Positions 1-62,583 of a stretch of 64,000 nucleotides of DNA are shown here, in pieces. A program made the translations under genes and the position numbers. The stretch's first letter is position 1, and each line of letters starts with the position of its first letter. The notes below the pieces were generated by a model. That model had not been told where the DNA came from, searched no databases, and saw nothing but the letters and a program-made list of their open reading frames with translations. Source of the stretch: Bimastos eiseni (Eukaryota > Annelida > Clitellata > Crassiclitellata > Lumbricidae); contig OY365810.1 of the NCBI GenBank assembly GCA_959347315.1, forward strand, positions 20,100,358 through 20,164,357, written 5' to 3'.

Positions 1-765
1 GCTCGACTTCAAAACTGCTTCCACCATTGCTACCTCTATCGTCCACTCCAAGCTCGACTACTGCAATTCCCTCTTCCTCAACCTTGAAGCCACACAAATC
101 AAACGTTTACAGTTAATCCAAAACTCATTAGTCAGAGCCGTCACCAGAACACCCAAGCATCCAAATCACTTCAATGGCTAAAAATCCCAGAGCGCATTCA
201 CTTCAAAATCTTATCATTAACTTACAACTCCATACAATATTTACAGCCCAAATATCTTCGCGAACTCTTCACCATCCAGCCAACCCGCTCTACCCGATCG
301 TCTTCTTGCCTCACCCTCACTCGACCCCCGATTACATCTCATCTCAAGTTTTCCAACCGCGCAATATCAAACGCCGTGCCTCGTCTCTGGAACGACCTAC
401 CTCCTGAATTTCGTGCCTTCTCGGTTCCTTCACCATCATTTCCAGTCATGCTGCATCATCTGTCCCTAGCGCCTCTGTCCATCACATCCCGGGCTTTTCA
501 TTCTAAACTTAAGTCCCACCTTTTCAAGAACTCTTACCCAGACTCACTACTTGACATCCCATCTGTCAATCCTCGACCAAAGCGACACCCTCCTTAACAG
601 TTACTCTGCCTCCCTGCTGACCTTCTTGAAACTGAACTCTGACTGCGAACGGACTATCCTTTGGACAACCCCTTTGATTTGACGCAGCGCTCGTGAATAA
701 GCTGGTGCCCTGCGCTTAGCTTTAAAGTGGCGCTTTAGAAATTTGGAGATTACGATTACGATTAT
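1..765 (+). mobile_element. 3' end of an L2-like LINE
   Basis: The first 600 bases encode, with frame breaks, the C-terminal tail of a non-LTR retrotransposon polyprotein: the LDYCNS motif near the start, a PRLWNDLP motif near 376-400 and a K(S)HLF end near 520. The protein part matches the homologous segment of the larger element at 39600-40030 (SIVHSKLDYCNS in both). The noncoding tail, including the phrase gtgaataagctggtg near 690, matches the tail at 18276-18530, so these copies form one family. The copy ends in a short (attacg)n run at about 745-765, as expected for L2-type LINEs. It is 5' truncated by the window edge and is not functional. Confidence 0.85.
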
Positions 766-1272: not shown

Positions 1273-1278
1273 GACTTA
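1273..1278. repeat. Left target-site duplication GACTTA of the Polinton
   Basis: GACTTA directly abuts the left element end and is repeated exactly at 6438-6443. Six base pairs is the duplication length made by Polinton/Maverick integrases. Confidence 0.93.
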
Positions 1279-1696
1279 AGTAGTGGTGATAGTACAGGAA
1301 AACGAGACGGAGGAGGTCGATACTTCTGCTGGACATACAAAGAGACATACGCACAAGGACAAGAGGCATACACACACGGACAAGCGGCCATACGTACACG
1401 GACAAACACTCGGACACGCATACGCTCACGGACAAGCACACGGACACGTACAAAGCGACATACGCACACATACAAAGACACATACGCACACATACAAAGA
1501 CACATACGCACATATACATACATATACATACATATAATGACACACACACATACACGCACGCATACGCACACATACAAGCACACAGACACGCACACATACG
1601 CCCATTTTTGGTTTACGGCTCAGTCATTGGCGGAAAGGCGGCGGCGGCGGCTGACCCTTCGCCCTTCCCTAGGGCGGCGCGCTCATCAAAGGAATG
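1279..1696 (+). repeat. Left terminal inverted repeat of the Polinton
   Basis: Its reverse complement matches 6014-6437: conserved outer 70 bases, an (ACACAT/ACGCAC)n-like middle of variable length, then a GC-rich inner block with ggcggcggc and ctagggcggc, ending at gctcatcaaaggaa. Reading frames inside it are low-complexity artefacts. Confidence 0.92.
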
Positions 1697-1986
1697 GTTG
1701 TAGGCCATAAAATTGACGAAATCCATACGGTATCAGAACATACAAAAACATTGTTTAAATATGTGCCAACAGTGGATCGTTTTACTTAGGCTCCACATAA
1801 ATGCAATCCCACCAATTCTGTCATCTAAAATATAATCGATGCTTAGGCCTCGTGCGGAATTTGACCTACCTACTTACTAAAGGACATTAGACGCTTGTTT
1901 ATCTATAAAACTTTGGAAAATAGCAACGCTCGTTTAGTATCTACGACGAACTCGAAGCATAAACTGATCACTTCGCGACATTATAT

Positions 1987-2446
1987 ATGAAAAGTAACGA
2001 TAAAAGTAAAATTTGCCGCTCCATCGTATACGTAAAAGAACGTGATTTTGCCGAAACGGTAAAATCGGCCGAGAATTCCGAACCGGATCTCGAAGATATC
2101 GTAAAGTCGCCAACGATGGGCGAAACGGAAATTGTTTAAGGGTCATCGGATCAATTCGAAAGAAGAATTGTTTGATTCGAGCGGAGGCAGTTGCGATGGC
2201 AGCGATGACGAGAAATTCGTCTCCGCCGCAGATATTTTAGCCGAATACAGATTAAAATGCGCTAGGAAGGATAATGAAACTCTGAAGACGACGTTGATAT
2301 GCAGACATTGTCGTTCGCGCGGCGTTGAATCCATGTCTCTGCCTTGCGCTCACATCGTGTGCTGCGAAAATTGTGCGGATATACTGGACTCGTGTCCTCT
2401 GTGTTCGGAGCGTATATTGGGAACAGTCAAAATTTATATAGTCTAA
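1987..2446 (+). pseudogene. RING-finger protein of the Polinton (frameshifted)
   Basis: An ATG at 1987 opens a 50-codon frame, rich in Lys, Glu and Asp, that stops at 2139. The continuation in another frame (from about 2132) runs to a stop at 2446, so one frameshift near 2135 splits the gene. The C-terminal 45 residues hold a C3HC4-type RING: CRHC, then CAH, CENC and CPLC, ending a few residues before the stop. That spacing resembles the C-terminal RING of IAP-type E3 ubiquitin ligases. No BIR domain is visible. The N-terminal part is acidic and Ser-rich with no recognised fold. RING or IAP-like genes are known accessory genes of virus-like elements and are thought to act on host ubiquitin pathways; the role here is inference. 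The ATPase gene begins 45 bp downstream. Confidence 0.75.
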
Positions 2447-2491
2447 AAGTATATAAATTTATTTCGGATCGCGAAACATTCACTCTCGAGC

Positions 2492-3106
2492 ATGGATCCA
2501 ACTTGGCAGCACCCGTTTTCAGCAATAATAAGCGGCCCCAGCGGGTCAGGAAAGACGCAGTTTACTTTTAGATTCATCGATCACTTACCGCATATGGTGA
2601 AACCCGCGATCAATAAAATTCTATAGTGTTACGGAATATATCAAGAAATATTTGACAGATATCCACAAATTCAATTTCACGAAGGTCTGCCGGACTTGAA
2701 TATTTTCGACGGCAAAGAGAGAACTCGGCTCGTTTTGGACGATTTGATGAGCAAGACCGACGAACACGTTAAAAAAATCTTTACCAAGATAGGTCGTCAC
2801 AGAAACGTTTCTGTCTTATACCTGACGCAAAATTTATTCTACAAAGGCAAGCATACGAGAACGATAAGTCTGAACGCTCATTATTTGGTTCTCTTCAAAA
2901 ACGTTAGAGATTCCACGCAAGTTGCGAATTTGGCTAGGCAAATGTTTCCCGGAAAGTCCAATTTCATGTTGGAAGCCTTTGGCGACGCTACCATGCAGCC
3001 TTTCGGTTATCTATTGGTCGCTTTAAGACCGGATACCGACGAGAGATATCGATTAAGGACGAACATGTTTCCCGGCGAGAAACATTACGTCTACGTTAGA
3101 AAGTAA
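2492..3106 (+). pseudogene. Polinton packaging ATPase (FtsK/HerA-type), one in-frame stop
   Basis: The frame opens at ATG 2492 and reads to a stop at 3106 (204 codons), interrupted only by a TAG at 2624-2626. Residues 14-21 form a Walker A P-loop (GPSGSGKT). A Walker B-like segment, RLVLDDLM, lies near 2726-2749. The downstream YLTQNLF, RTISLNAHY and KNVRDSTQVANLARQMF segments are typical of the A32-like genome-packaging ATPases of Polintons and adintoviruses, which pump DNA into a procapsid. The length fits the family. It is the least damaged gene of the element. A single TAG could be a recent mutation, a sequencing error or, less likely, readthrough. The integrase ATG lies 49 bp downstream. 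Confidence 0.88.
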
Positions 3107-3154
3107 AAACTATATAGCTATTTGGGATCAAGGTTCTGTAGTCGTTCGATAAAA

Positions 3155-4398
3155 ATGTCTTCGCGATTTAAGAAGTATTTCGCCAAATTAAAGTTACTGA
3201 AGGAAGCGACTGCCAAAACAAGGAGAAATATCCTGAAAGATTGCAGCAAAGGTCGAAGGAACGAAGACAGATGGAACTATATTAACGGATCATCGAACTC
3301 TGCCGATCACCGTACGAAGATCCACCGCGTCGTCGAGCGCACGCAAAAAGCAGCGAAAGACGTTGAAGTGGGCTCTTTACTGATGGAGTCGTATTTCGAT
3401 CCGAAGCATCCGTCCAGTTTCGGATGCGTGGAAACGTTCAAGAGACATTTAAAAGAGCGAATTAAATCTAAAGATTTGAAAACTTGGTTATTGGATAAAG
3501 ACGCTTATGCTTTGCATAAACCCGTCAGATTTAAATTCAGACGTAGAAAAACTTTTGCCGTAGGTTTAGACGATTTGTGGCAGGCCGATTTGATCGACGT
3601 TTTCTCTGTCGAAATATAACGATAAAATAAATATCTGTTAACATGCATCGATGTGTTTTCCAAATACGCGAGAGTTCTCCCGCTTAAATCAAAGACAGTA
3701 CCTGCACTGACCAAAGCTTTTCAGCGATGTTGAATGATGGATCGCACCCCGCTCACTAGCAGACCGATAAAGGCACCGAATTTCTCAATAGATCCTTTCA
3801 GACTCTGCTGCGCAAAAATGCCATTCTTTTCTACACTTCCGAAAACGAGGATATCAAGCGGCCGTCGTAGAGAGATTTAATCGTACCCTCAAAACCAAAA
3901 TTTGGAAATATTTCACGCACGGGAACATGCATCGGTACGTCGACGTTTTGCCCGATCTTGTATATTCGTACAACGAAATGTTTCATAGAAGCATAGGATG
4001 GCTCCAGCTCGTGTAACCCTAGAAAACGGAGAAGTCGTGAGAAAGCGCCTATTCGGCGGAAAGAAGAGACTGCCGGTTTGGAAGTACGAGAATGGCAACA
4101 AGGTGAGAATAAGTAAGGCCAGAATAGCATTCAAAAAGGGCTACCTACCTTTGTGGTCGGAAGAAATTTTCGCTATATCGGGTCGAATACCTTCCAATCC
4201 CGTAACGTACGAATTTATGGATTACAGCGGCAAGAAAGTAAAAGGTAAATTCTATCAAGAAGAATTGCAACGCGTTTCTAAAGAAGACGACATTTACATA
4301 GTGGAAGCGATATTAAAAACTCGCAAACAAGGCAAAAAATTGGAATATATGACAACGACAGTTTTAATTCTTGGACTTTTGATATATTGGATACTTAA
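3155..4398 (+). pseudogene. Polinton integrase (retroviral-type, multiply frameshifted)
   Basis: The start at ATG 3155 gives a basic N-terminal region. The rve-type catalytic core follows in pieces: first Asp in WQADLIDV (about 3578-3600), IDVFSKYARVLPLKSK (about 3645-3695), second Asp in DKGTEF (about 3762-3780) and the Glu in ERFNRT (about 3869-3886). The C-terminal part (3998 onward) has KVRISKARIAFKKGYLPLWSEEIF and FYQEELQRV, typical of Polinton integrases. A chromodomain-like ending, DSFNSWT, is readable in the +1 frame and stops at 4396-4398. At least four frameshifts (near 3600, 3860, 3995 and 4350) break the gene. The hydrophobic tail read in the 3998-4438 frame is a product of the last frameshift, not a membrane segment. 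Confidence 0.88.
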
Positions 4399-4441
4399 AC
4401 ATCTTTTGATTCAGATCGATCGTGTATATGGTTCGTAAAGG

Positions 4442-5248
4442 ATGGCTCACTTTTATCTCACGTTACCGAGCAACAACTTCGCGAACTACTATCCGGATAA
4501 TCAGATCACGCGATTTACCACGAGATTAGAGGAAACCGTATCTCTGTCCGGCTATTGGGAAGTCGGTTTGGTCGAAATACAATAAGCTCGCAGTTGGAAT
4601 AATTTATTCAGAGGGGAAGGTAGAGTTCACTATTCTCAATCCGCTGTCCAAAACGGCAAGCAGATTTACGTACATCACACTGTACGTCTCCCGGTCGGAT
4701 ACTACGAATCGCCTTCCAGCATCGTGCATTGCATAAACTATTATATACAAGAATTTGCGAAAAAGTCGGAAGTCAAAGACTTTCTGACCTTTAGTTATAA
4801 CGTCGTAATGAAACGCTTTCACGGAGAAATAAGCGAAGGTGCGAGTCTGATTTTCACCGTCTCTATGTTCTATGTTGGGCATCGAGTCGCATCAGAATCC
4901 CATACAGCATTTCGAGAACGAGCCGTTAAGTTTTAGATCGGGTAGCGCGTGTGACGTAAATCGAGGATTTAATTCCCTTTTCGTCTACTGCAACTTGTGG
5001 GAACACGTTATGGTCGGGGATATCAAAGTTCCTCTGCTTCGTATCGTACCGATTTCGGGAAGAAACGGCGATATCGTCCACACCATGTACGAAAAGCCTC
5101 AATACGTACCCTTGTACAGCAGAAACATTTCGATTCTATCGAGATAGGTATAAGGAACGACGTCGGTCTACCCGTACCATTCGAAACCGGGAAAGTGTTG
5201 ATAACGCTTCATTTCGAATTGCGCAAAATTCCATATCTATTACAATGA
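4442..5248 (+). pseudogene. Probable Polinton minor capsid (penton-like) protein, broken
   Basis: ATG 4442 opens with MAHFYLTLPSN, then YYPDN and SGYWEVGLVEIQ, a set I associate with the conserved Polinton capsid-accessory family. A TAA at 4583-4585 interrupts the frame. It resumes in phase to about 4870, shifts to the frame ending near 5147 (with FVYCNLWEH and VGDIKVPLLRIVP), then shifts again near 5140 to end as RNDVGLPVPFETGKVLITLHF before the TGA at 5246-5248. About 269 codons fits a single-jelly-roll minor capsid (penton) protein, which forms capsid vertices in related viruses. The assignment to minor rather than another capsid protein rests on length and remembered family motifs. The stop overlaps the next ATG (5245) as ATGA. 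Confidence 0.66.
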
Positions 5249-5673
5249 AAAGACAATTTTTTGCGACAAGTGTCGCGAGTCGTTTTGCGTACGAAGACTA
5301 TTACTCTCAACAGAGCGGGAGCGGAATGCCTGTTTTCCAAGGCTCTCGCATGCAGCGCGGACACGGACTGGGAAGCATTCTCAGCGGATTCTTCAGAAGC
5401 GCCTGGTCTTTAATTCAAACCGAAGCTAAAGCTTTCGGAAAACAGTTCTTGAGAACTGGTTTGCAGATAGCCAACGACGTTGCGGATGGGCAAAATTTCA
5501 AAGAGGCTAGCAAATCTCGTATTCCGGCCGGTATAAAAGAGTTTGCGTCGACCAACCATATCTATAATCAAAGCGGTAGCTTTGGATCGTTTTGTACGTG
5601 GAGAATTCTTCGTATGGAGAATATTTCGACTCGTTCGGCAGACCACCAGAAGATGACTTTAGCGATTTTTTGA
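5245..5673 (+). pseudogene. pX/pVI-like core peptide of the Polinton, C-terminus replaced
   Basis: The frame starts at ATG 5245, overlapping the preceding stop. Residues 35-100 read QRGHGLGSILSGFFRSAW, then KAFGKQFLRTGLQIANDV and DGQNFKEASKSR. This Gly- and Lys-rich amphipathic block recurs in Polinton and adintovirus genomes and is compared with adenovirus core/membrane-lytic proteins. Family similarity ends near 5560 (IKEFASTN). The rest of the frame to 5673 is an artefact of an internal deletion that brings in protease-coding sequence in another frame. The likely role is a minor virion component that binds DNA or disrupts membranes (inference). Confidence 0.6.
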
Positions 5674-5885
5674 CCAGATATTGCGAACATTGGATTTTTA
5701 ATGATAAACATTTAAAAAGTTCCATTAGTCGTTTCTGCCGACACTATTGCATTTTCTACTGCTTGTATAGATGTAGAAATAAAAATCTTACCGCAATTAC
5801 TAATAAACTTACTTTGGATACTGGACTTAACGATTATTTGGTTCATAATTACGTGTGTAAGATGTTTGCCAATAAAATTTATTGA
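5592..5885 (+). pseudogene. C-terminal fragment of an adenain-type cysteine protease
   Basis: This frame, without an ATG, reads ENSSYGEYFDSFGRPPED, later HLKSSISRFCRHYCIFYC, and ends with a TGA at 5883-5885. FDSFGRPP and the Ser-rich segment before a C-x3-YC motif match the second half of the adenain/Ulp1-like maturation proteases of Polintons and related viruses. The candidate nucleophile Cys is followed by Arg (CRHYC) where the family usually has Gly. The N-terminal half with the catalytic His is absent, consistent with a deletion ending near 5570-5590. The fragment cannot be an active protease. The Gly-to-Arg reading needs an alignment. Confidence 0.72.
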
Positions 5886-6013
5886 AACGTTTCCATCATT
5901 CTTTTAATGTATAGGAGTTAAAAATTGCTCAAGCGCGTAGGCGATATGATATTTACGCTCGCTAGTTGTAGCGGATATTGTCTTTCGCCATGGGCGAATA
6001 TTCCCACGAGATC

Positions 6014-6437
6014 GTTCCTTTGATGAGCGTGCCGCCCTAGGGGAGGGAGAAGGGCCAGCCGCTGCCGCCGTTCTGCCAATAACTGGTAAACTAAAAATGG
6101 GCGTTTCTTTTCGTGCATATGTGCGTATATGTGTGCGTGTCATTGTATGTATGTATGTATATGTGTGTATGTGTGCTTGTATGTGTGCTCATATATGGGT
6201 GCGTGTCCGTGTGTGTGTCTGTGTGCTTTTATGTGTGCGTGTCTGTGTGCGTGTATGTGTGCGTATGCGTGCGTGTCATTGTATGCATGTATATGTATGT
6301 ATGTGTCTTTGTATGTGTGCGTATGTGTGTTTGTCCGTGTATGTATGGCCACTTGTCCTTGTGTGTATCTCTCTTTGTACGTCCAGCAGAAGGATCGACC
6401 TCGCCCCGTCTCGTTCTCTTTTACTATCACAAATACT
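6014..6437 (-). repeat. Right terminal inverted repeat of the Polinton
   Basis: Inverted counterpart of 1279-1696, with the same inner GC-rich block (gccgccctagg), a long TGTGTATGTGTGCG-type middle and the conserved outer tip. Its middle has expanded and diverged independently of the left arm. The overlapping Val/Cys/Met-rich frames here are not genes. Confidence 0.92.
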
Positions 6438-6443
6438 GACTTA
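6438..6443. repeat. Right target-site duplication GACTTA of the Polinton
   Basis: Exact copy of 1273-1278, directly after the right element end. Confidence 0.93.
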
Positions 6444-37887: not shown

Positions 37888-40035
37888 ATTTTCACAAAGC
37901 TCAACACTGAACCATCTATTCGCCACTCACTCAAACTGCACTCATTCCGCCGCATCAACTCCATCGACCTTGATGCATTCAAACTCGACCTTGAATCCTC
38001 CTCCCTGCTTCTCAATCCTCCAACAGATCTCCTGTCTGCATACAACTCCACCTTGTCTGAACTCATCAACAAACATGCCCCAATCATCACAAAGCCTGAA
38101 TCTCATGCAAAAAATCCATGGTTCAACTCGTTTCTGCAAGCTCTAAAATCATCGCGCCGTCGCCTGGAACGAGCATACAAACGAACACACGACATATCCA
38201 TTCTCAATAGACTAAAAACCGTAACAAACAGATACCATAGCCAACTTCTCTCAACCAAGAAGCACTACCTACCATCTCTCGTTCACTCAAATTCATCCAA
38301 CCCTTGAAATCTTTGGAAAACTGTTAATAATCTTCTCCACTGCAGCTCCTCTAATTCTCTTCCAAACTCTATTCCACATGCATCCATTGCCGACTCCTTT
38401 GCATCTTTCTTCACCAACAAAGTATCCTCTCTCCGTCTCTCGTTACAGACTCTCCTATCACCATCATCATCATCCCCCTCAGACGATCACGGCGACACAA
38501 TTTTGCCACTTGGTACATCTTTTGACATATTCGAGCCTGCTACTGACGAAATCATAACCCTCATCCAAGCCTCTCAAAACAAACAATGTGACCTCGACCC
38601 AATTCCAACCTCCTTACTAAAAGACTGTGCAACTCTTCTCGTTCCTACAATTACGAAGATCATCAACCTATCTCAATCAACCGGCACTTTTCCTATGCTT
38701 TTCAAGGACTCGACTGTTAAACCACTCCTCAAAAAACCATCCTTAGACAAAGAACTCCTGTCTAACTATCGGCCAATTTCAAATATCTCTATCTTATTCA
38801 AACTCTCGGAACGGGTTGTCCTCTCTCGTCTCAATGGCTTCCTAACCTCAAACAATCTCAACCCAAATCAATCTGCATACACCAAAAACACTACAGAAAC
38901 ACTACTCACCTCATTATACAACAAACTTGCTATGGCGATAGGTCGCCAACAAGTGTCTTGTCTATGTCTCTTAGACATTTCTGCCGCCTTCGACACCATA
39001 GATCACGCCATTCTTATCAAACGCCTTTCCTCTGCATTTGGAATCTCTGGTACTGCCCTATCCTGGATCAAGTCATACCTTTCTTCACGCTCCTTCACTG
39101 TCAATACCTCTGGTCACACATCTAGTCCTCACAGCCTTGCCTGCGATGTTCCTCAAGGTTCTGTTCTTGGACCTCTTTTATTCATTCTGTACACCTCCCC
39201 ACTCAGCAAAATCATTTCCTAGTCTTCTGTAGATCATCAGCTTTACGCTGACGATACACAACTATTCTTATCTTTCTCTCCTCAATCACTTACAGATGCA
39301 ATAAATCCCGTTCAAAACACCATCACCCTTATATCAACTTGGATGACCACCCACCTGCTCTGTCTAAACTTTTCAAAAACAGAATTTCTCATGATTGGCC
39401 TCCGTGAGCAATTGAACAAACTTATTTACCCCTCCGACCTTCTTCAAACGAACCCAACTTATCCTGTGCCTTACTCTTCTCCTGTCCGCATTCTTGCAGT
39501 CATCTTCGATAAGAACCTTACCTTTTCTCACCACATCACTCAGCTATCTCGCACCTGCTATATGCACATCCGCGACCTTCGTCGATTCTCAACTACAAGA
39601 CTGCATGCACAATAGCCACATCAATTGTTCATTCAAAGCTAGATTACTGTAATTCTCTCTTTCACAACATTGATTCCTCACAAATAAGACGCCTCCAAAC
39701 AACTGAGACTGCTGTTGCCCACGCAGTCATTAAAACCCCGAAACGCCATCATATTACCTCTGTCTTAAAATCATTTCATTGACTTAAAGTTCCTCAACGC
39801 ATCAACTACAAAATTATATATATCACCTACAACGCACTTCAAACCTCTCAACCCTCTTACATTCGTCAACTCCTTACAATCCAACCGCACGGATCAACTA
39901 GCTCATCGTCATCGTCATATCTTTCTCTATCTCGACCTCCAGTCTCATCGTCTCTGAAATTCTGCAACCGCTCCTGCTGCGCCATTAATTTGGAACGGAC
40001 TCCCAAATATCCATCAATTTCTCCATTGTTTGAAT
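37888..40035 (+). pseudogene. L2-like LINE reverse transcriptase and tail
   Basis: After the insertion the polyprotein resumes with RHSLKLHSFRRINSIDLDAF and KNPWFNSFLQALKSSRRRLE. A TGA at 38306 interrupts it. The RT has LLSNYRPISNISILFKLSER, LLDISAAFDTIDHAIL (about 38970-39015), DVPQGSVLGPLLFILY, a TAG at 39220-39222, then YADDTQLFL at 39244-39270 with an intact catalytic Asp pair. The thumb (LNFSKTEFLMIG, RILAVIFDKNLTFSHHI) and LDYCNSLF tail follow, with breaks near 39615, 39780 and 39960. Damage is light, suggesting a fairly young copy. Confidence 0.92.
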
Positions 40036-42184: not shown

Positions 42185-44640
42185 ATGTTCGTTGGGTCGC
42201 ATCTAGCTACAGAAGTGTACATGCAGTTTGCAGTGTTACACTGCTCTGCATAAACACTTCTGCAACAAAGCTATTGACACATGTCTGGAGGGACGAGAGC
42301 GGGCAAAGTTCTCCGGTTTCGCGAAAAAACTTGAAAATCCAATATTTATAAAAAATCTGGGGCTCATGTACAATGGTCTTGAGGAGTTGTCAGTTGTCAG
42401 TTGTCAGACCTGTCCTTGGCACTACAGAAATCTTACATAACGTTGCCAGTTGCAAATAGGCTTATTTCTCGTCAGATTGAAGTATTTAATGCTCGTAGTG
42501 AAAATCATGCACAGCATTACAAAGAAGTATGTGAAGTAGTATCGTAAGGTATGTTTCACAATGTTCCTGTGCATGATGTAGAGGGCAAAGAAAAATAGAT
42601 CAGACCGGGTCAGTTTTATCAGACTCTGAGTGATTCGCTGCAAGGTTGCAGAGGTATTTATCATAGACAAGATGGTGGTACAAATGTTGACAATGCTCAA
42701 AGAAAATACAACTCCAGGAATAGACTATATACACCTAAAATTTTTAAAGGAGGTGAGGCATAAAGTGGGAGTGATTCTGGCTGACATTTTCAATGAATCC
42801 ATAAAGAGAGGGGAAATTCCAAGGGACTGGAGAGATGCAATAATCACACCATTATTTAAGAAGGGTAACAGGAATGAAACTAATAACTACAGAGAGGTCA
42901 GTTTAACGTGTATTATATGCAAGGTGATGGAGAAAATAGTCAATGGAAGGATCGTTGAACATCTGAAGGAAAACGGAATAATTAATAATAGCCAGCATGG
43001 TTTTATGAAAGGAAGATCCTGACTGACAAATCTATTGGATTTCTTCAAGGAGGTGTACGATAATATGGAGAGAGAAAATTCAGTGGACTTGATATATTTG
43101 GACTTTGCAAAAGCTTTCGATAAGGTACCTCATCAAAGACTGGAAATGAAGCTACAGGGATGTGGAATACATGGTGGACTGCTACAATGGACTACTAACT
43201 GGCTGAAGGATAGACGACAAAGGATTAATGGCAAGTTTTCAAGCTGGATGGATGTCACTAGTGGAGTGCCTCAGGACTCAGTATTAGGACCATTGCTGTT
43301 TGTAATATATACCAATGACAAAGAGGAAAGAATAATCTCAAAGATTTCAAAATTTGCTGACAATATAAAACTCTGTGCAAAAGTTAACAATGAGGAAGAT
43401 GCCAAAGTGCTAAGACAGGACTTGGAAGGATTGTACAGGATTGTAATATGCTGTTCTACATGGATAAATTGTGTTTTAATCATGTGGGGAGAAAGAATGA
43501 AGGCTTTGAGTATGAAATAGGTGGCAGGAAGTTAAGAGTAACGGAGGAGGACCTGGAAGAAAAATACCTGGGAGTCGTCATTCATAAAAGCACCAAACCA
43601 TCAAGACAATGCACTGAAGCAGCAAGCAAAGCAAATAAAGTTCTGGGACAAATAAGAAGAATGATAGTCAGCAGGGACAAGAATATTATCCTGAACCTAT
43701 GTAAAGCGCTTGTCAGACCACACTTGGAGTACTGTGTGCAAGTGTGGTGCCCATACACGAAACAGGACAAGGAGGTGCAGCAAAGAGTGCAGAGGAGAGC
43801 TACTAAGATGATAAGAGGATACAGAACATTGACATACGAAGAGAGATTAAGGAAGTGTGGACTAACAAAATTGAACAGAAGAAGAGAAAGGGGAGATTTA
43901 ATCGAGACATACAAGATCATAATAGGCAAGGAGATAACAACACCATCGAGGTTCTTCCAACTGGCTGACAGAGGTGGCTTAAGAGGACACATTTATAAAA
44001 TCTATAAGAAACCAGAAGGACCCATAAATCAAAGATTCTTCAGCAGCAGGGTGGTGAATGCATGGAACCACTTGAGTGAAGAGACAGTTTCTGTGCAGAC
44101 AATTTTTAATAGCTTCAAGACTCGGCCAGGGACTATTGAGATGTGTACTATAGGGGTGGTTCTCACACTGGCCTCAATCTACTGAGCCACCTAAAACCCA
44201 GTTATATTATTGCTGCCAGATGATGAGAAAGCTCTCTGTAGTTCATTGGCAGTATTGGATTTCAAAACTGGCCAAGCGATCCTATATCCCCAGAGTATGG
44301 TGAAATTGAAGTTCAATTATTATATGTGAAAAGTTTGACTTGAATTTTAAAAATGTGAAATTTGCATATTGTTCGTTCAAGGACAGTGATTTGATAAAAG
44401 TCCTCATTTACTTGCATTACTTAATCGTGTAAACACAATTCCTGTGAGTACTGCTGAATGTAAACGTGGGTTCAGCAAAATTAATATCGTGTGCACACCT
44501 TTGCGCTCATGCCTAACAGTGAAATACTTGTGTTCATTGACGTTCATTTCGCTGACTGGTCCTCCGCTAGCAATGTGGAAACCTCTGCCATATGTTAAGT
44601 TGTGGATTGCATCTGACAAAAGAGATGCATGCCAATAAAT
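42185..44640 (+). pseudogene. hAT transposase relic split by a CR1 LINE
   Basis: The first part (42200-42535) carries GRERAKFSGFAKKLENPIFI and LALQKSYITLPVANRLISRQ across frames. The second part (44210-44640) has PEYGEIEVQ-like sequence, then STAECKRGFSKINIVCTPLR and MWKPLPYVKLWIASDKRDA, the hAT C-terminal dimerisation region of the KIAA1586-like type. The two parts are collinear in one transposase, and the CR1 LINE at about 42600-44190 sits between them. Multiple stops; no termini identified. Confidence 0.75.
42600..44190 (+). mobile_element. CR1-like LINE reverse transcriptase, 5' truncated
   Basis: Encodes TPGIDYIHLKFLKEV, IPRDWRDAIITPLFKKGN, a stop at 43021-43023, LDFAKAFDKVPHQRL, SGVPQDSVLGPLLFVIY (Gln-Asp where Gln-Gly is usual) and FADNIKLC. 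Here the second catalytic Asp is replaced by Asn, so the RT is dead even apart from stops. A frame change near 43450 leads to KYLGVVIHKSTKPSRQC, ALVRPHLEYCVQVW, RVQRRATKMIRGYR and FFSSRVVNAWNHL, ending by 44185. This tail is typical of CR1. It is inserted in a hAT relic. Confidence 0.92.
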
Positions 44641-54917: not shown

Positions 54918-57900
54918 CAGTGGCGTAGCTATCTCATCACGGGCCCCACAGCAGCTTTATATACGGGCCCCCACTCCAACAGTTATTTAAAGAAACTAAA
55001 CCAGTAAACGCGCGCACTGTAAACCTGATTGTCATAACATGTTTAACATCACTTTAATTAAATCCATTTTATAGTTTAAAGACATGCCTCTACACTCTAC
55101 AGTATGTTCAGAATTTCTTTCTGCGGCACTTCTTCTCTGCAAAATGTTAACAAGTTCATCAACGTCCATTTTATTTGCGTTTTCGTTTTCTATGCTAAGA
55201 ATGGCTAATCCAGATAGTCTATCTTGCAACATGGTACTACGCAAATAGTTTTTGATGAGCTTAAGCTTGGAGAACGACCTCTCTGCTGTTACCACAGTTA
55301 CTGGTAAAGTGAGGAAGAGAAGATATGCAGTGCAGACATCTGGGAGTGATGTAACAAGAGAACTATTTTCGATTATCAAAAGATGACTCAACTCTTTGAT
55401 TGTGTTTATTTTCTTAATTTCTTGTTTGAGAACCATTGTAAAGCTTTGTAGCTGCTCGAAGAACGATGGTGCTATGTCATTTGAATACTGTTGTTGTAAC
55501 TTTGTCGCCTTTGTGAATAGTTGATCATCGGTGGCGGCAGTCAATTGACGGGGGTGCAGTATGCCAAATGTATCTACCACAACCTGCATTCCTCTGAACC
55601 GATGAACAACCTGATTGATGAGAATGTCAAGAGTGTGGTAAACCACATTTACTTTGAATCGCATTTCTGGATCAGTGAGTCGGCTATCATCGCATAGATC
55701 ATCAAACTGCTTCTCTGCTTTTGGGATTCGTTTACCTTTTCCAAAATTGGTCTCTACACCCCATTGTTGGGCAAGAGAGACTGCCGTTTTCTTGGCAATA
55801 TTGTATTCATTTGAATTGTTCCTGAATGCTGACATGAGTTCAAACAAATTTTTAAGCAGATTTGAAGCACTCATTAAGTCAATTGTATCAGTCTGTAGCA
55901 TTTTTGAAACAGTATTCACACTTTCAAACATTTTTGTGAGCACAACCAGAAGAAAAACAAATTCAAACGATTCTAATTTCCTTTGAAGTCCGAGTGCTTC
56001 AGCAATTATATCTTTTTTTTTCTCGACCAGATTTATATTTATTAATGCTTTCAATATATCTACATAACGATAGCGTACTGCTATTATGCACTCTTCACGG
56101 GACGACCATCTTGTTGGGCACAATGCCTCGAGTTTGATATTCGACTTAGTTGTAAACGATGACAGAATGTCCCATCGTTTGATGCTGGAACCGAAGAACG
56201 TGTAAATCCGCTGAATAACATCGAAAAATTGTGATACTTCGTGTACTTGAGAAACTGCATCATTCAGAACCAAGTTCAGATTATGTGCAACACAATTAAC
56301 GTATAAAGCGTTTGGCACTTTTTCCAAAATACGTGATTGGACTCCAGAGTAGACACCACTCATTGTGGCAGCACCGTCATAGCCTTGGCCCCTGCATTTC
56401 AACAGATCCAACCCTTTATCTTTTATGCACTTTAAAATTTCGCCTTCAATTCCTGCAGCACTTTGATCATGAATCGCACGGAAGCCTAGACAACTTTCAT
56501 TGATCTGAATGTGGGTTCGTTTTCCAGTTTCAGGGTCAGTCTCTATCGTCACATAACGAAATACTTCACTCATTTGATCAACTTTGGAAATATCTTGAGT
56601 GGTGTCTATGATGACTGTAAAAAAAGGAGCCTGCTTTATCAGATCTATTAAAGCATTTTGCAAATGAGTAGAAAGTATCTCTATTACTTCATTCTGCACT
56701 GTAGGGCTTAAATATTTGGTTGTTCCACCAGGTCGTTCAATAAGTTCTTTCAACACTGGGTCATATGCCGCCAAAAGTTCAATGACTGATAAAAAATTTC
56801 CAGAATTCACATTTCCCAACTTTTCCCTATGGCCTCTGAAAGCGAGTCCGCGCGTCGTTAAAGTAAGAGTAACGTTCACAACACGATGTACAATTTGCCT
56901 CCAAAAGTTCCTTTCTTTTAACACTTGCTTCTCGTTTTCTTCATCAATAGTTTTATGAAGCCTCCAATGATCAAAAACCACACAAGCTTCAGCATGCCCA
57001 TCAGAACATTCATGCATACGAATTTTACTTGTTAACGATTTCCATTTACGAATTCCTTTTGCCCATGCAGGTTCATTTCCAAGTTTTGTACGATCACCAA
57101 AATGCCAACATGGCTCACAATACACAGAATCAAGTTTCTGTGAATAACACAAATAAGTAACTGGTAATTTCAAACCAGCTTTAGTTGTCCTCTCATAATA
57201 CTTTTCTGAAAAGCTCCTGTTGTCTTGATTCGGATCCCTAGAAAAAGGACCTCTGGGCTGGCATGGTCCATGTTCCACGACAAACCGTTTGATGCTATTG
57301 TCACTTACATTAACAGAATAGTTTGCTCTGTCCGTTGGGAATTGACCTAAAATCACTAAAACTTCAGTTTCGACTGGAATAACATCCAATTTGTTTGCAG
57401 TTTCAACAATTTTAGTTTCCATAGTGTTTGGATCAAACGCTTCGACTGAATTAGTAACAGTAGAACTAGTACTACATCCTTCCGAAATCGATGGCTGAGT
57501 TTCAACATTTCCTTCATTAACGCAGCTAGTGTCTGGCGTTCTACCTGCTACGTTACAAACATCTGGACTCGGTCGACTTTTCAACTCGGCAGAGGCAGAT
57601 TGACTTTGCTTAGGTGCTGGATTACAAAAATGATCTATTTTTTGTAGTTTCCTTAAGCTTAACATCTCCTCATGCTTTTTTTTACGTTTTGTTGCTCCAC
57701 TTGTGTGTTGATATGACATTTTGGGCTGCTTTATATTTTGTTAATATCTTGAAATTTAAAATTATTTCCAAATATTATAATTAAAACTAAATTTTTAGCT
57801 TCTAGATTCAAACGTTAATTAAGCTTTTTACTGCACATTAAAATAAACAATTGACGTCATATTACGTCACAAAACAGGAAGTATAGTAATAGCGTATTCA

Positions 57901-61494: not shown

Positions 61495-61944
61495 CTATAG
61501 TTGATCGTGTTGAATCATGTCAAAAGCTTTTGTAAAGTCAATGAAGCAGAGGTACAGTGGTTGTTTCCTTTCTCTCGCTTTCTCGATGATGATTCTTAAG
61601 TTAACAATTTGATCTCGCGTGCCTTTTCTTGGCCTAAAGTCAGCCTGTTCTTCAGCGATCTCTGTTTCCAGCTTGGTCTGGATGCGTTCCAGTAACAGTC
61701 GTAACAAAATCTTACTGGCATGTGAGACTAGTGCAATTGTTCTGTGATTAGCACAGTGAAGTAGATTTCCTTTCTTTGGCAGTGGAATCAAAATTGACTG
61801 TGACCATTCTTCTGGCCAATCCCCGGTCTCCCATACGTCCACACATATCTCGTGCAGTCCTGTCAGAGTCATTTCTCCACCAAATCTAAACAGCTCAGCG
61901 GCTGGGCCATCTGGGCCTGATGACTTCCGCATAGCTGCTTTCAA
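61495..61944 (-). pseudogene. LINE RT, finger and palm part
   Basis: 150 codons open: MRKSSGPDGPAAELFRFGGE, WPEEWSQSILIPLPKKGNLL, TIALVSHASKILL, QADFRPRKGTRDQIVNLRII and LYLCFIDFTKAFDMIQHDQL. The first catalytic Asp is in FIDFTKAFD. The YADD block is lost to the deletion. Confidence 0.9.
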
Positions 61945-62066
61945 TATGGCTCGTCTTATCTCTTCTTTTAGTGGCGGTGGTTCCTTTTCTTGTATTTTGA
62001 TTTTTATGTCTTTTTCCTCTTTTTCATTGCTGTAGAGTCCTTCACAATATTCTCTATATCTTTGGT

Positions 62067-62583
62067 TTACTTTTGCGGTTCAACAAGTTTTTTGTTCTTG
62101 TTGTCATTTATGGCTGTGGTTCGAGGCTTGAACGAGCCAGTGAGTTTCTTCACCATTTGGAATACTGGTCTGGTGTTACCTTTCCTTTCGTTCTCCTCCA
62201 GCTCGATGCATAATGTATCCAATTCCGACTGCTTGTCTCTTCGTAACATCCGTTGTACCTCATTTCGTAGAATTTTGTACTCTTGTGGAGGCCTTGTTTT
62301 TGCATCTCTTTTCTTATCTTATTAATTCAAAGGTGTCACTGGAGATCCAATTCTTTCGCTTGTCGCAGTTCTTCAGTAATGTTGTTTTGGCGGCACTCAG
62401 AGTGATCTCTTTAAGTTGTTGCCATAGTTCATCTGCTGTGCGTGGTTCGGCAATTCCCTCAAGTGCTTCGAATCTATTAGTTATTTCAACTTGGTATTGC
62501 TGTTCTATCTGATTGTTTCCGAGTTTTTCCAAGTCTAGGAGAAGAGGTTTGATGGTTCGTTTCTTTTTGAATCTTAAATGCAT
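62067..62583 (-). pseudogene. LINE linker between endonuclease and RT
   Basis: Two frames: LRFKKKRTIKPLLLDLEKLG ... LKEITLSAAKTTLLKNCDKR (62583-62314) and MLRRDKQSELDTLCIELEEN (62249-62067). This is the usual region between the domains, with one frameshift near 62320. Confidence 0.75.

What the first reader, a model, noticed from the sequence alone, without database searches (positions are those of the whole stretch)
1273..6443. Compact Polinton with both ends and an exact 6-bp duplication
The element is only 5.16 kb against the usual 15-20 kb, yet it has complete ~420-bp inverted repeats and a perfect GACTTA duplication. It was either inserted as a deletion derivative or shrank in place. Short Polintons that keep the capsid/packaging genes but lack the polymerase are seldom described.
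Basis: partly seen in the sequence, partly recalled or inferred. Interest (0 to 1): 0.75.

Follow-up and report, generated by a model that had tools for sequence, protein, structure and literature searches.

The report
Decayed short Maverick from polymerase-lacking family
This is a decayed, twice-deleted copy of a virus-like mobile element whose local family (about 8 kb per copy, dozens of copies) carries capsid and integration genes but, in the copies examined, no DNA polymerase of its own.

Summary
Observation confirmed: a 5,159-bp element at 1279-6437 with ~420-bp inverted repeats and an exact GACTTA duplication. The 5.16-kb form is not a family: each of its two deletion junctions was found at 1 place in the 660-Mb genome (up to 3 mismatches); an undeleted control pattern was found at 57. 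Nor does the copy keep its capsid genes: the major capsid protein, part of the protease and two small genes are deleted, and ATPase, integrase and penton carry stops or frame breaks. The missing polymerase belongs to the family. Sister copies with both ends (best 7,885 bp) have the Maverick order ATPase-PM-PZ-integrase-penton-PW-MCP-protease, with a RING gene between left repeat and ATPase and no pPolB. In 14 of 15 left ends the repeat runs into RING and ATPase; 0 of 85 detected PolB loci start within 10 kb of the 102 ATPase or 113 MCP loci found with the family's proteins. A separate 11.9-kb PolB-bearing Polinton with the same AGTAGT ends sits in the genome and could have supplied polymerase in trans (inference). 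Variants between copies are mostly singletons, spread about evenly over codon positions: one burst, then neutral decay.

The parts
1273..1278 (.). target site duplication GACTTA, left
1279..1694 (+). left terminal inverted repeat, begins AGTAGT; holds CA-rich tandem units
2105..2446 (+). RING (C3HC4) protein, C-terminal part open; IAP-type RING in a sister copy
   Evidence: PF13920 6.1e-9; sister copy L004 matches BIRC3 RING 2e-8
2447..3106 (+). A32-like packaging ATPase with Walker A GPSGSGKT (motif recalled), interrupted by an in-frame stop at 2624-2626
   Evidence: window piece Pox_A32 0.0041, below cut-off; sister copy L009 3.5e-6, above cut-off
3107..3254 (+). start of the gene in the PM position, cut by deletion 1
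   Evidence: name from gene order in PMC8097293
3255..3257 (.). deletion 1 junction (788 bp missing against L034, 790 against L032) with 3-nt filler; removes the rest of PM and nearly all PZ
   Evidence: one place in the genome
3258..4438 (+). PZ tail and rve integrase, in pieces in different frames (3107-3619, 3792-4016, 3989-4438)
   Evidence: window piece rve_3 0.014, below cut-off; sister copy L036 rve 6.8e-10 and Chromo 2.5e-7
4443..5250 (+). penton (minor capsid) gene, broken over frames; limits approximate
   Evidence: a metagenome homologue, 76% identical to the penton of copy L032, folds like mavirus penton, 3.6e-12
5245..5580 (+). short protein in the PW position, C-terminus cut by deletion 2; start approximate
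   Evidence: name from gene order only
5581..5581 (.). deletion 2 junction (1,552 bp missing against L034, 3-nt AGC microhomology); removes PW end, whole MCP and N-part of protease
   Evidence: one place in the genome
5582..5885 (+). C-terminal part of the gene in the protease position
   Evidence: no Pfam match in L034; identity by position and recalled resemblance
6015..6437 (-). right terminal inverted repeat
6438..6443 (.). target site duplication GACTTA, right

Best explanation
The locus is a fossil copy of a Maverick-derived, polymerase-lacking element. Shown: a copy was inserted with a 6-bp duplication and AGTAGT-type ends; sister copies with both ends (up to 7.9 kb) carry RING-ATPase-PM-PZ-integrase-penton-PW-MCP-protease between ~0.4-0.6-kb inverted repeats and no pPolB; this copy lacks ~0.79 kb and ~1.55 kb through two private deletions with end-joining type junctions, and its genes carry stops and frame breaks. 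Inferred: the family integrated with its own rve-chromo integrase, was copied by a protein-primed PolB supplied in trans by a PolB-bearing Polinton of the same genome, spread in one burst, and has since decayed without selection.
For: Ends and duplication. Sisters with both ends: L034, L032, L033, flanks agreeing at 5 of 6 bases (my reading; for L032 and L033 I set the end by eye at AGTAGT or its remnant). Gene identities: RING, ATPase, integrase, MCP fold, penton fold. No pPolB: left repeat contiguous with RING and ATPase in 14 of 15 left ends, window included (L008 breaks off inside RING, and its held interior has no PolB match); 0 of 85 PolB loci start within 10 kb of 102 ATPase / 113 MCP loci; the element has no blastn match in 30 PolB loci cut with 1.5-kb flanks and one translated match, integrase-like, 37%. 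The nearest PolB to an ATPase match (C3, 12.7 kb) is 85% identical to the PolB of the separate 11.9-kb family, so it is probably a neighbour. Private deletions: control. Burst and decay: window 5.5-8.0% from 13 sister copies in 14 loci; singletons outnumber shared variants in all six genes tested and are roughly even over codon positions.
Against: Searches score only part of the candidates (TIR 40 of 1128, PolB 91 of 457 and 55 of 2409, ATPase 150 of 575, MCP 150 of 223), so a PolB-bearing sister could be missed. Four PolB loci lie within 20 kb of an ATPase or MCP locus against about 1.1 expected by chance; C3:46.54-46.56 Mb has diverged MCP (51%), ATPase (65%) and PolB on one strand in an order that would fit a Maverick, though no matching repeat was found there. 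Short ATPase-MCP spacing says nothing about PolB, which lies upstream of ATPase in the known order. The RING singletons are not quite even (89, 68, 99; P 0.053). Trans supply of polymerase is not tested. The junction test would miss a copy with more than 3 mismatches; the control found 57 places although 102-113 loci exist.
Confidence: 0.85

Rival explanations
1. Ordinary decay of full-length, PolB-bearing Mavericks: this copy and its sisters each lost PolB separately after insertion.
For: Most Mavericks are degraded: PMC8097293 (section 6 read) gives 96% eroded; sister copies do show separate internal deletions (L032, L033, L070).
Against: Fourteen of 15 left ends have one arrangement, repeat-RING-ATPase, aligned without room for PolB; separate losses would not give one arrangement.
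Confidence: 0.06
2. The 5.16-kb form is itself a mobile deletion derivative that amplified.
For: Intact ends and exact duplication fit insertion in the short form.
Against: Each junction was found at one place, its own, at up to 3 mismatches, against 57 places for an undeleted control of the same length.
Confidence: 0.03
3. The family is a lasting satellite virus: it keeps capsid genes under selection and borrows only the polymerase.
For: A full set of morphogenesis genes with integrase and repeats, no pPolB; a PolB-bearing Polinton with the same AGTAGT ends and an exact 6-bp duplication coexists.
Against: Shared variants are few and show no significant third-position excess (ATPase 8, 8, 15; MCP piece 4, 4, 5), so selection during amplification is not shown, though the test has little power in one burst; the repeats of the two groups match in the terminal hexamer only.
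Confidence: 0.2

Closest known systems
Vertebrate Mavericks (PMC8097293, sections 6 and 7 read, other passages seen)
   Same: 6-bp duplications, (AGT)2//(ACT)2 ends, inverted repeats of a few hundred bp (mean 402), gene order atp-pm-pz and int-mcp-pw-Mcp-pro
   Different: theirs include pPolB in the first module and are 12.7-24.6 kb when intact; here no pPolB, a RING gene next to the left repeat, all genes on one strand (as in the Xenopus tropicalis ones), about 7.9 kb
Adintoviruses (PMC11071296, passages seen)
   Same: rve integrase with C-terminal chromodomain, hexon-type MCP and penton; anti-apoptotic gene homologues are reported there for mammal-associated species
   Different: defined there by a distinctive PolB, absent here
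Tlr1 element and Polinton-like viruses (PMC11071308, PMC4028283, passages seen)
   Same: Tlr1 has rve integrase, packaging ATPase and MCP without pPolB
   Different: Tlr1 codes for a superfamily 1 helicase instead and PLVs mostly for other replication proteins; none recognised among the ORFs scanned here
11.9-kb PolB-bearing Polinton of the same genome (C1:27,048,955-27,060,885)
   Same: AGTAGT ends, exact 6-bp duplication GATATG, rve-chromo integrase, double jelly-roll domain
   Different: different inverted repeats (about 210 bp), different MCP, PolB present

Membership tests
Polinton/Maverick (autonomous) | 6-bp target site duplication | tested here: met
   GACTTA both sides
Polinton/Maverick (autonomous) | terminal inverted repeats with (AGT)2 ends | tested here: met
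   right end of this copy has one changed base
Polinton/Maverick (autonomous) | retroviral-type (rve) integrase | tested here: met
   rve and Chromo in sister copy L036; broken in the window
Polinton/Maverick (autonomous) | protein-primed PolB | tested here: not met
   absent from this copy and from the 14 of 15 left ends that reach ATPase; 0 of 85 PolB loci start within 10 kb. Hence filed as a Maverick-derived non-autonomous element, not as a Polinton proper
Polinton/Maverick (autonomous) | double jelly-roll MCP and single jelly-roll penton | tested here: met
   family level, on metagenome homologues: MCP model hits PBCV-1, Sputnik, mavirus MCPs; penton model hits mavirus penton. In the window copy MCP is deleted
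Polinton/Maverick (autonomous) | Ulp1/adenain-type protease | tested here: inconclusive
   gene in the right place, no Pfam or NCBIfam match
Polinton-like virus / Tlr1 | helicase or other replicase in place of pPolB | tested here: inconclusive
   no helicase, primase or other polymerase over its Pfam cut-off among the ORFs scanned (L009 ATPase has a sub-threshold RNA_helicase row, 0.1); not every ORF was scanned
distinct 5.16-kb family | other loci with the same internal deletions | tested here: not met
   against control

The most novel reading that the evidence does not exclude
A Maverick lineage of this (probably animal) genome gave up its own polymerase, kept integrase and the full set of capsid genes, and spread to dozens of loci as a satellite of PolB-bearing Polintons in the same genome: a capsid-coding, polymerase-borrowing mobile element of about 8 kb.
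Probability: 0.25. Interest if true: 0.6.

Novelty: new variant of a known kind. Interest (0 to 1): 0.42.

Why it matters
Polintons are called self-synthesising because they bring their own polymerase. A family that amplified with a full capsid set but without it separates the two halves of the element and makes helper-satellite relations among endogenous viruses of one genome testable. It also shows what a length filter hides: the 2014 capsid survey removed Polinton-like elements under 10 kb as incomplete (PMC4028283 Methods passage). The single window copy is itself an ordinary fossil.

Tried and rejected
Rejected: a distinct 5.16-kb family. Rejected: a two-part system in which PolB elements are mere PolB carriers; the one I opened has its own integrase, double jelly-roll domain and other genes. 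Rejected as evidence: short ATPase-MCP spacing (58 of 102 ATPase loci have an MCP downstream on the same strand within 25 kb, 52 of them within 5.7 kb), because pPolB lies upstream of ATPase in the known order. First taken for a PolB-bearing relative, then doubted: C3:46.54-46.56 Mb, since its PolB is 85% identical to that of the separate 11.9-kb family and no repeat like ours was found in the pieces read. PolB identity of the query L041: the genome search gave PF03175 68 bits, but hmmscan of the same protein listed only a weak Endonuclease_7 and solved structures gave nothing useful; it is 42% identical over 638 columns to the L044 protein, which has PF03175 1.1e-17, so I keep the name. No result: ATPase and MCP scans of viral contigs (no relative confirmed); PHROGs and NCBIfam gave only transposase-type matches of use; empty site by joined flanks (only the two own halves, so the target is single-copy here). 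In one search, L013 and L026 are one copy.

Not answered at all: an integrase search of the genome, a RING search and a count of repeat ends.
Full report
What is there. At 1279-6437 lies a 5,159-bp element between two copies of GACTTA. Its ends are inverted repeats of 416 and 423 bp, 75% alike over 430 columns, E 5e-74. Two stretches largely outside the tandem array, 1313-1367 and 1639-1694, are each 91% complementary to their partners; the rest is mostly a CA/TG-rich array. An exact 6-base match at that spacing occurs at 17 of 51,800 other positions. The left end reads AGTAGT, the motif (AGT)2//(ACT)2 given for vertebrate Mavericks (PMC8097293, section 7 read); the right end of this copy has one changed base in the hexamer.

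What it encodes. Stop-to-stop frames and Pfam show a RING domain (2105-2446, PF13920, 6.1e-9), an A32-like ATPase with Walker A and one in-frame stop (2447-3106; Pfam below cut-off), and integrase, penton and small-gene pieces in changing frames. Sister copies give firmer names: ATPase Pox_A32 3.5e-6 (L009), with 379 homologues among 454 candidates; integrase rve 6.8e-10 plus Chromo 2.5e-7 (L036); RING nearest to BIRC3, 2e-8, with other IAP RINGs and MYLIP close behind (L004). MCP: 746 homologues among 6654 candidates (query L070, a copy in which PW and MCP are fused by a deletion); the model of an unaltered homologue, 86% identical to the query (pLDDT 77), matches PBCV-1, Sputnik and mavirus MCPs (best 4.0e-15). 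Penton: 78 homologues among 147 candidates; the model of one 76% identical to the query (pLDDT 87) matches mavirus penton (3.6e-12) and adenovirus penton bases, and in the viral library an adintovirus protein among others. PM, PZ, PW and the protease are named by gene order against PMC8097293 and by recall; no profile confirmed them.

The family. The repeats recur at many places (73 rows; 40 of 1128 candidates scored). Of 30 loci cut out, 25 (the window's own included) hold family interior next to the repeat and 5 do not (L007, L010, L018, L022, L028; L010 and L028 show no PolB either). Fourteen of the 25 are left-end loci, from 13 copies; with L032 and L035 there are 15 separate left ends. 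In 14 of 15 the repeat leads within about 1.5 kb through RING into ATPase; in one (L008) the interior breaks off inside RING, without PolB in what is held. The other 11 are right-end loci: all 11 lead into protease sequence and 10 of 11 into MCP sequence, L016 having lost nearly all of it. Copies with both ends recognised: L034 (7,885 bp), L032 and L033, and two repeat-only derivatives, L037 (612 bp) and L031 (with an inserted retrotransposon); a 10-kb copy with 3.2 kb of extra sequence (L035/L036) has the repeat at both sides but its outermost ends were not recognised. By my reading the flanking hexamers agree 6 of 6 in L031 and 5 of 6 in L032, L033, L034 and L037 (in L032 and L033 I set the end by eye), so these copies inserted one by one. 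The family is large: 150 ATPase rows and 153 MCP rows, merged to 102 and 113 loci, diverged relatives and fragments included.

Size and deletions of the window copy. Against L034 it lacks 788 bp at 3254/3258 (PM end and nearly all PZ, 3-nt filler) and 1,552 bp at 5580/5582 (PW end, all MCP, N-part of the protease, AGC microhomology); L032 gives 790 bp for the first. Longer repeats and small indels in L034 account for the remaining difference in length. Patterns of 24 bases across each junction occur once in the genome at up to 3 mismatches (the reversed control also had 1), while an undeleted stretch of the same length occurs at 57 places. So the short form did not visibly multiply; a diverged sibling could be missed, as 57 is below the number of loci. 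Other copies have their own, different losses in the PW-MCP stretch (L032, L033, L070).

No polymerase in the family. pPolB is the first gene listed in the known order, in one module with ATPase. Here 45 bp separate the RING stop from the first Met of the ATPase frame in the window, and 14 of 15 left ends align through. Two PolB searches (33 rows; 62 rows) give 85 loci: 0 start within 10 kb, 2 within 15 kb and 4 within 20 kb of an ATPase or MCP locus, with about 1.1 expected by chance within 20 kb. The element has no blastn match in the 30 PolB loci cut out. Against: only part of the candidates were scored, and C3:46.54-46.56 Mb has diverged MCP, ATPase and PolB on one strand.

Possible helper. 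At C1:27,048,955-27,060,885 an 11,931-bp element has AGTAGT ends, about 210-bp repeats (90%), an exact GATATG duplication, PolB, rve-chromo integrase, a double jelly-roll domain (PF21738) and a phospholipase-like domain. Its PolB was called by PF03175 in the genome search (68 bits) but not listed by hmmscan; a 42% identical relative is listed at 1.1e-17. Its repeats match ours in the terminal hexamer only. That such an element served our family in trans is inference.

History. The window copy differs by 5.5-8.0% over the RING-ATPase stretch from 14 loci, which are 13 sister copies. In six genes singletons outnumber shared variants and lie roughly evenly over codon positions (ATPase 60, 61, 76; RING 89, 68, 99, P 0.053; MCP piece 37, 35, 48; integrase 47, 50, 64; penton 32, 28, 39; protease 49, 56, 65), and the shared variants show no significant third-position excess. 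No tree was built. This fits one burst from near-identical sources and neutral decay, and gives no support for selection on the capsid genes during the burst.

Known or not. My searches of the held library (listings, and passages or sections of five papers) showed no description of a polymerase-lacking, capsid-coding Maverick family that amplified; subscription journals and Repbase entries were not searched, and non-autonomous Polintons may well be listed there (recalled). PMC4028283 removed elements under 10 kb. I therefore call the family a new variant of a known kind and the window copy an ordinary fossil of it.

Noticed in passing
L031:1499-4447 (G000:C6:39178400-39184900): A 983-aa open frame with reverse transcriptase (RVT_1, 3.3e-16) sits inside a repeat-only derivative of this family with an exact CATGCA duplication.
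   Followed up: partly
L037:293-904 (G000:C9): A 612-bp element made of the two inverted repeats only, flanked by TACGTG/TTCGTG; a miniature derivative.
   Followed up: partly
G000:C1:27048955-27060885 (L071, L041, L072): Separate 11.9-kb PolB-bearing Polinton with exact GATATG duplication; its PolB has about 50 full-length or part relatives of 77-92% in the genome.
   Followed up: partly
L011 and L014 (G000:C8:8396040 and 8192818): Two inverted copies 203 kb apart with the same 14-bp flank: probably a segmental duplication, not two insertions.
   Followed up: no
L033 and L070: Separate deletions fuse the PW-position gene in frame to the inside of MCP, at different points in the two copies.
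   Followed up: no
G000:C9:2.7-4.6 Mb, C13:22.6-27.9 Mb, C10:6.86-6.97 Mb: MCP matches of lower identity are crowded in a few chromosome regions, as if amplified locally.
   Followed up: no
window 55032-57740: A 902-aa open frame on the minus strand with DUF4371 and hAT dimerisation domain: an apparently open hAT-type transposase gene.
   Followed up: partly
window 88-597, 38308-39222, 43394-44185, 61495-62079: Open stretches that look like pieces of non-LTR retrotransposon reverse transcriptases (by eye).
   Followed up: no
G000:C7:14108855: An ATPase match lies in an open frame listed as 2099 aa, far longer than the gene.
   Followed up: no
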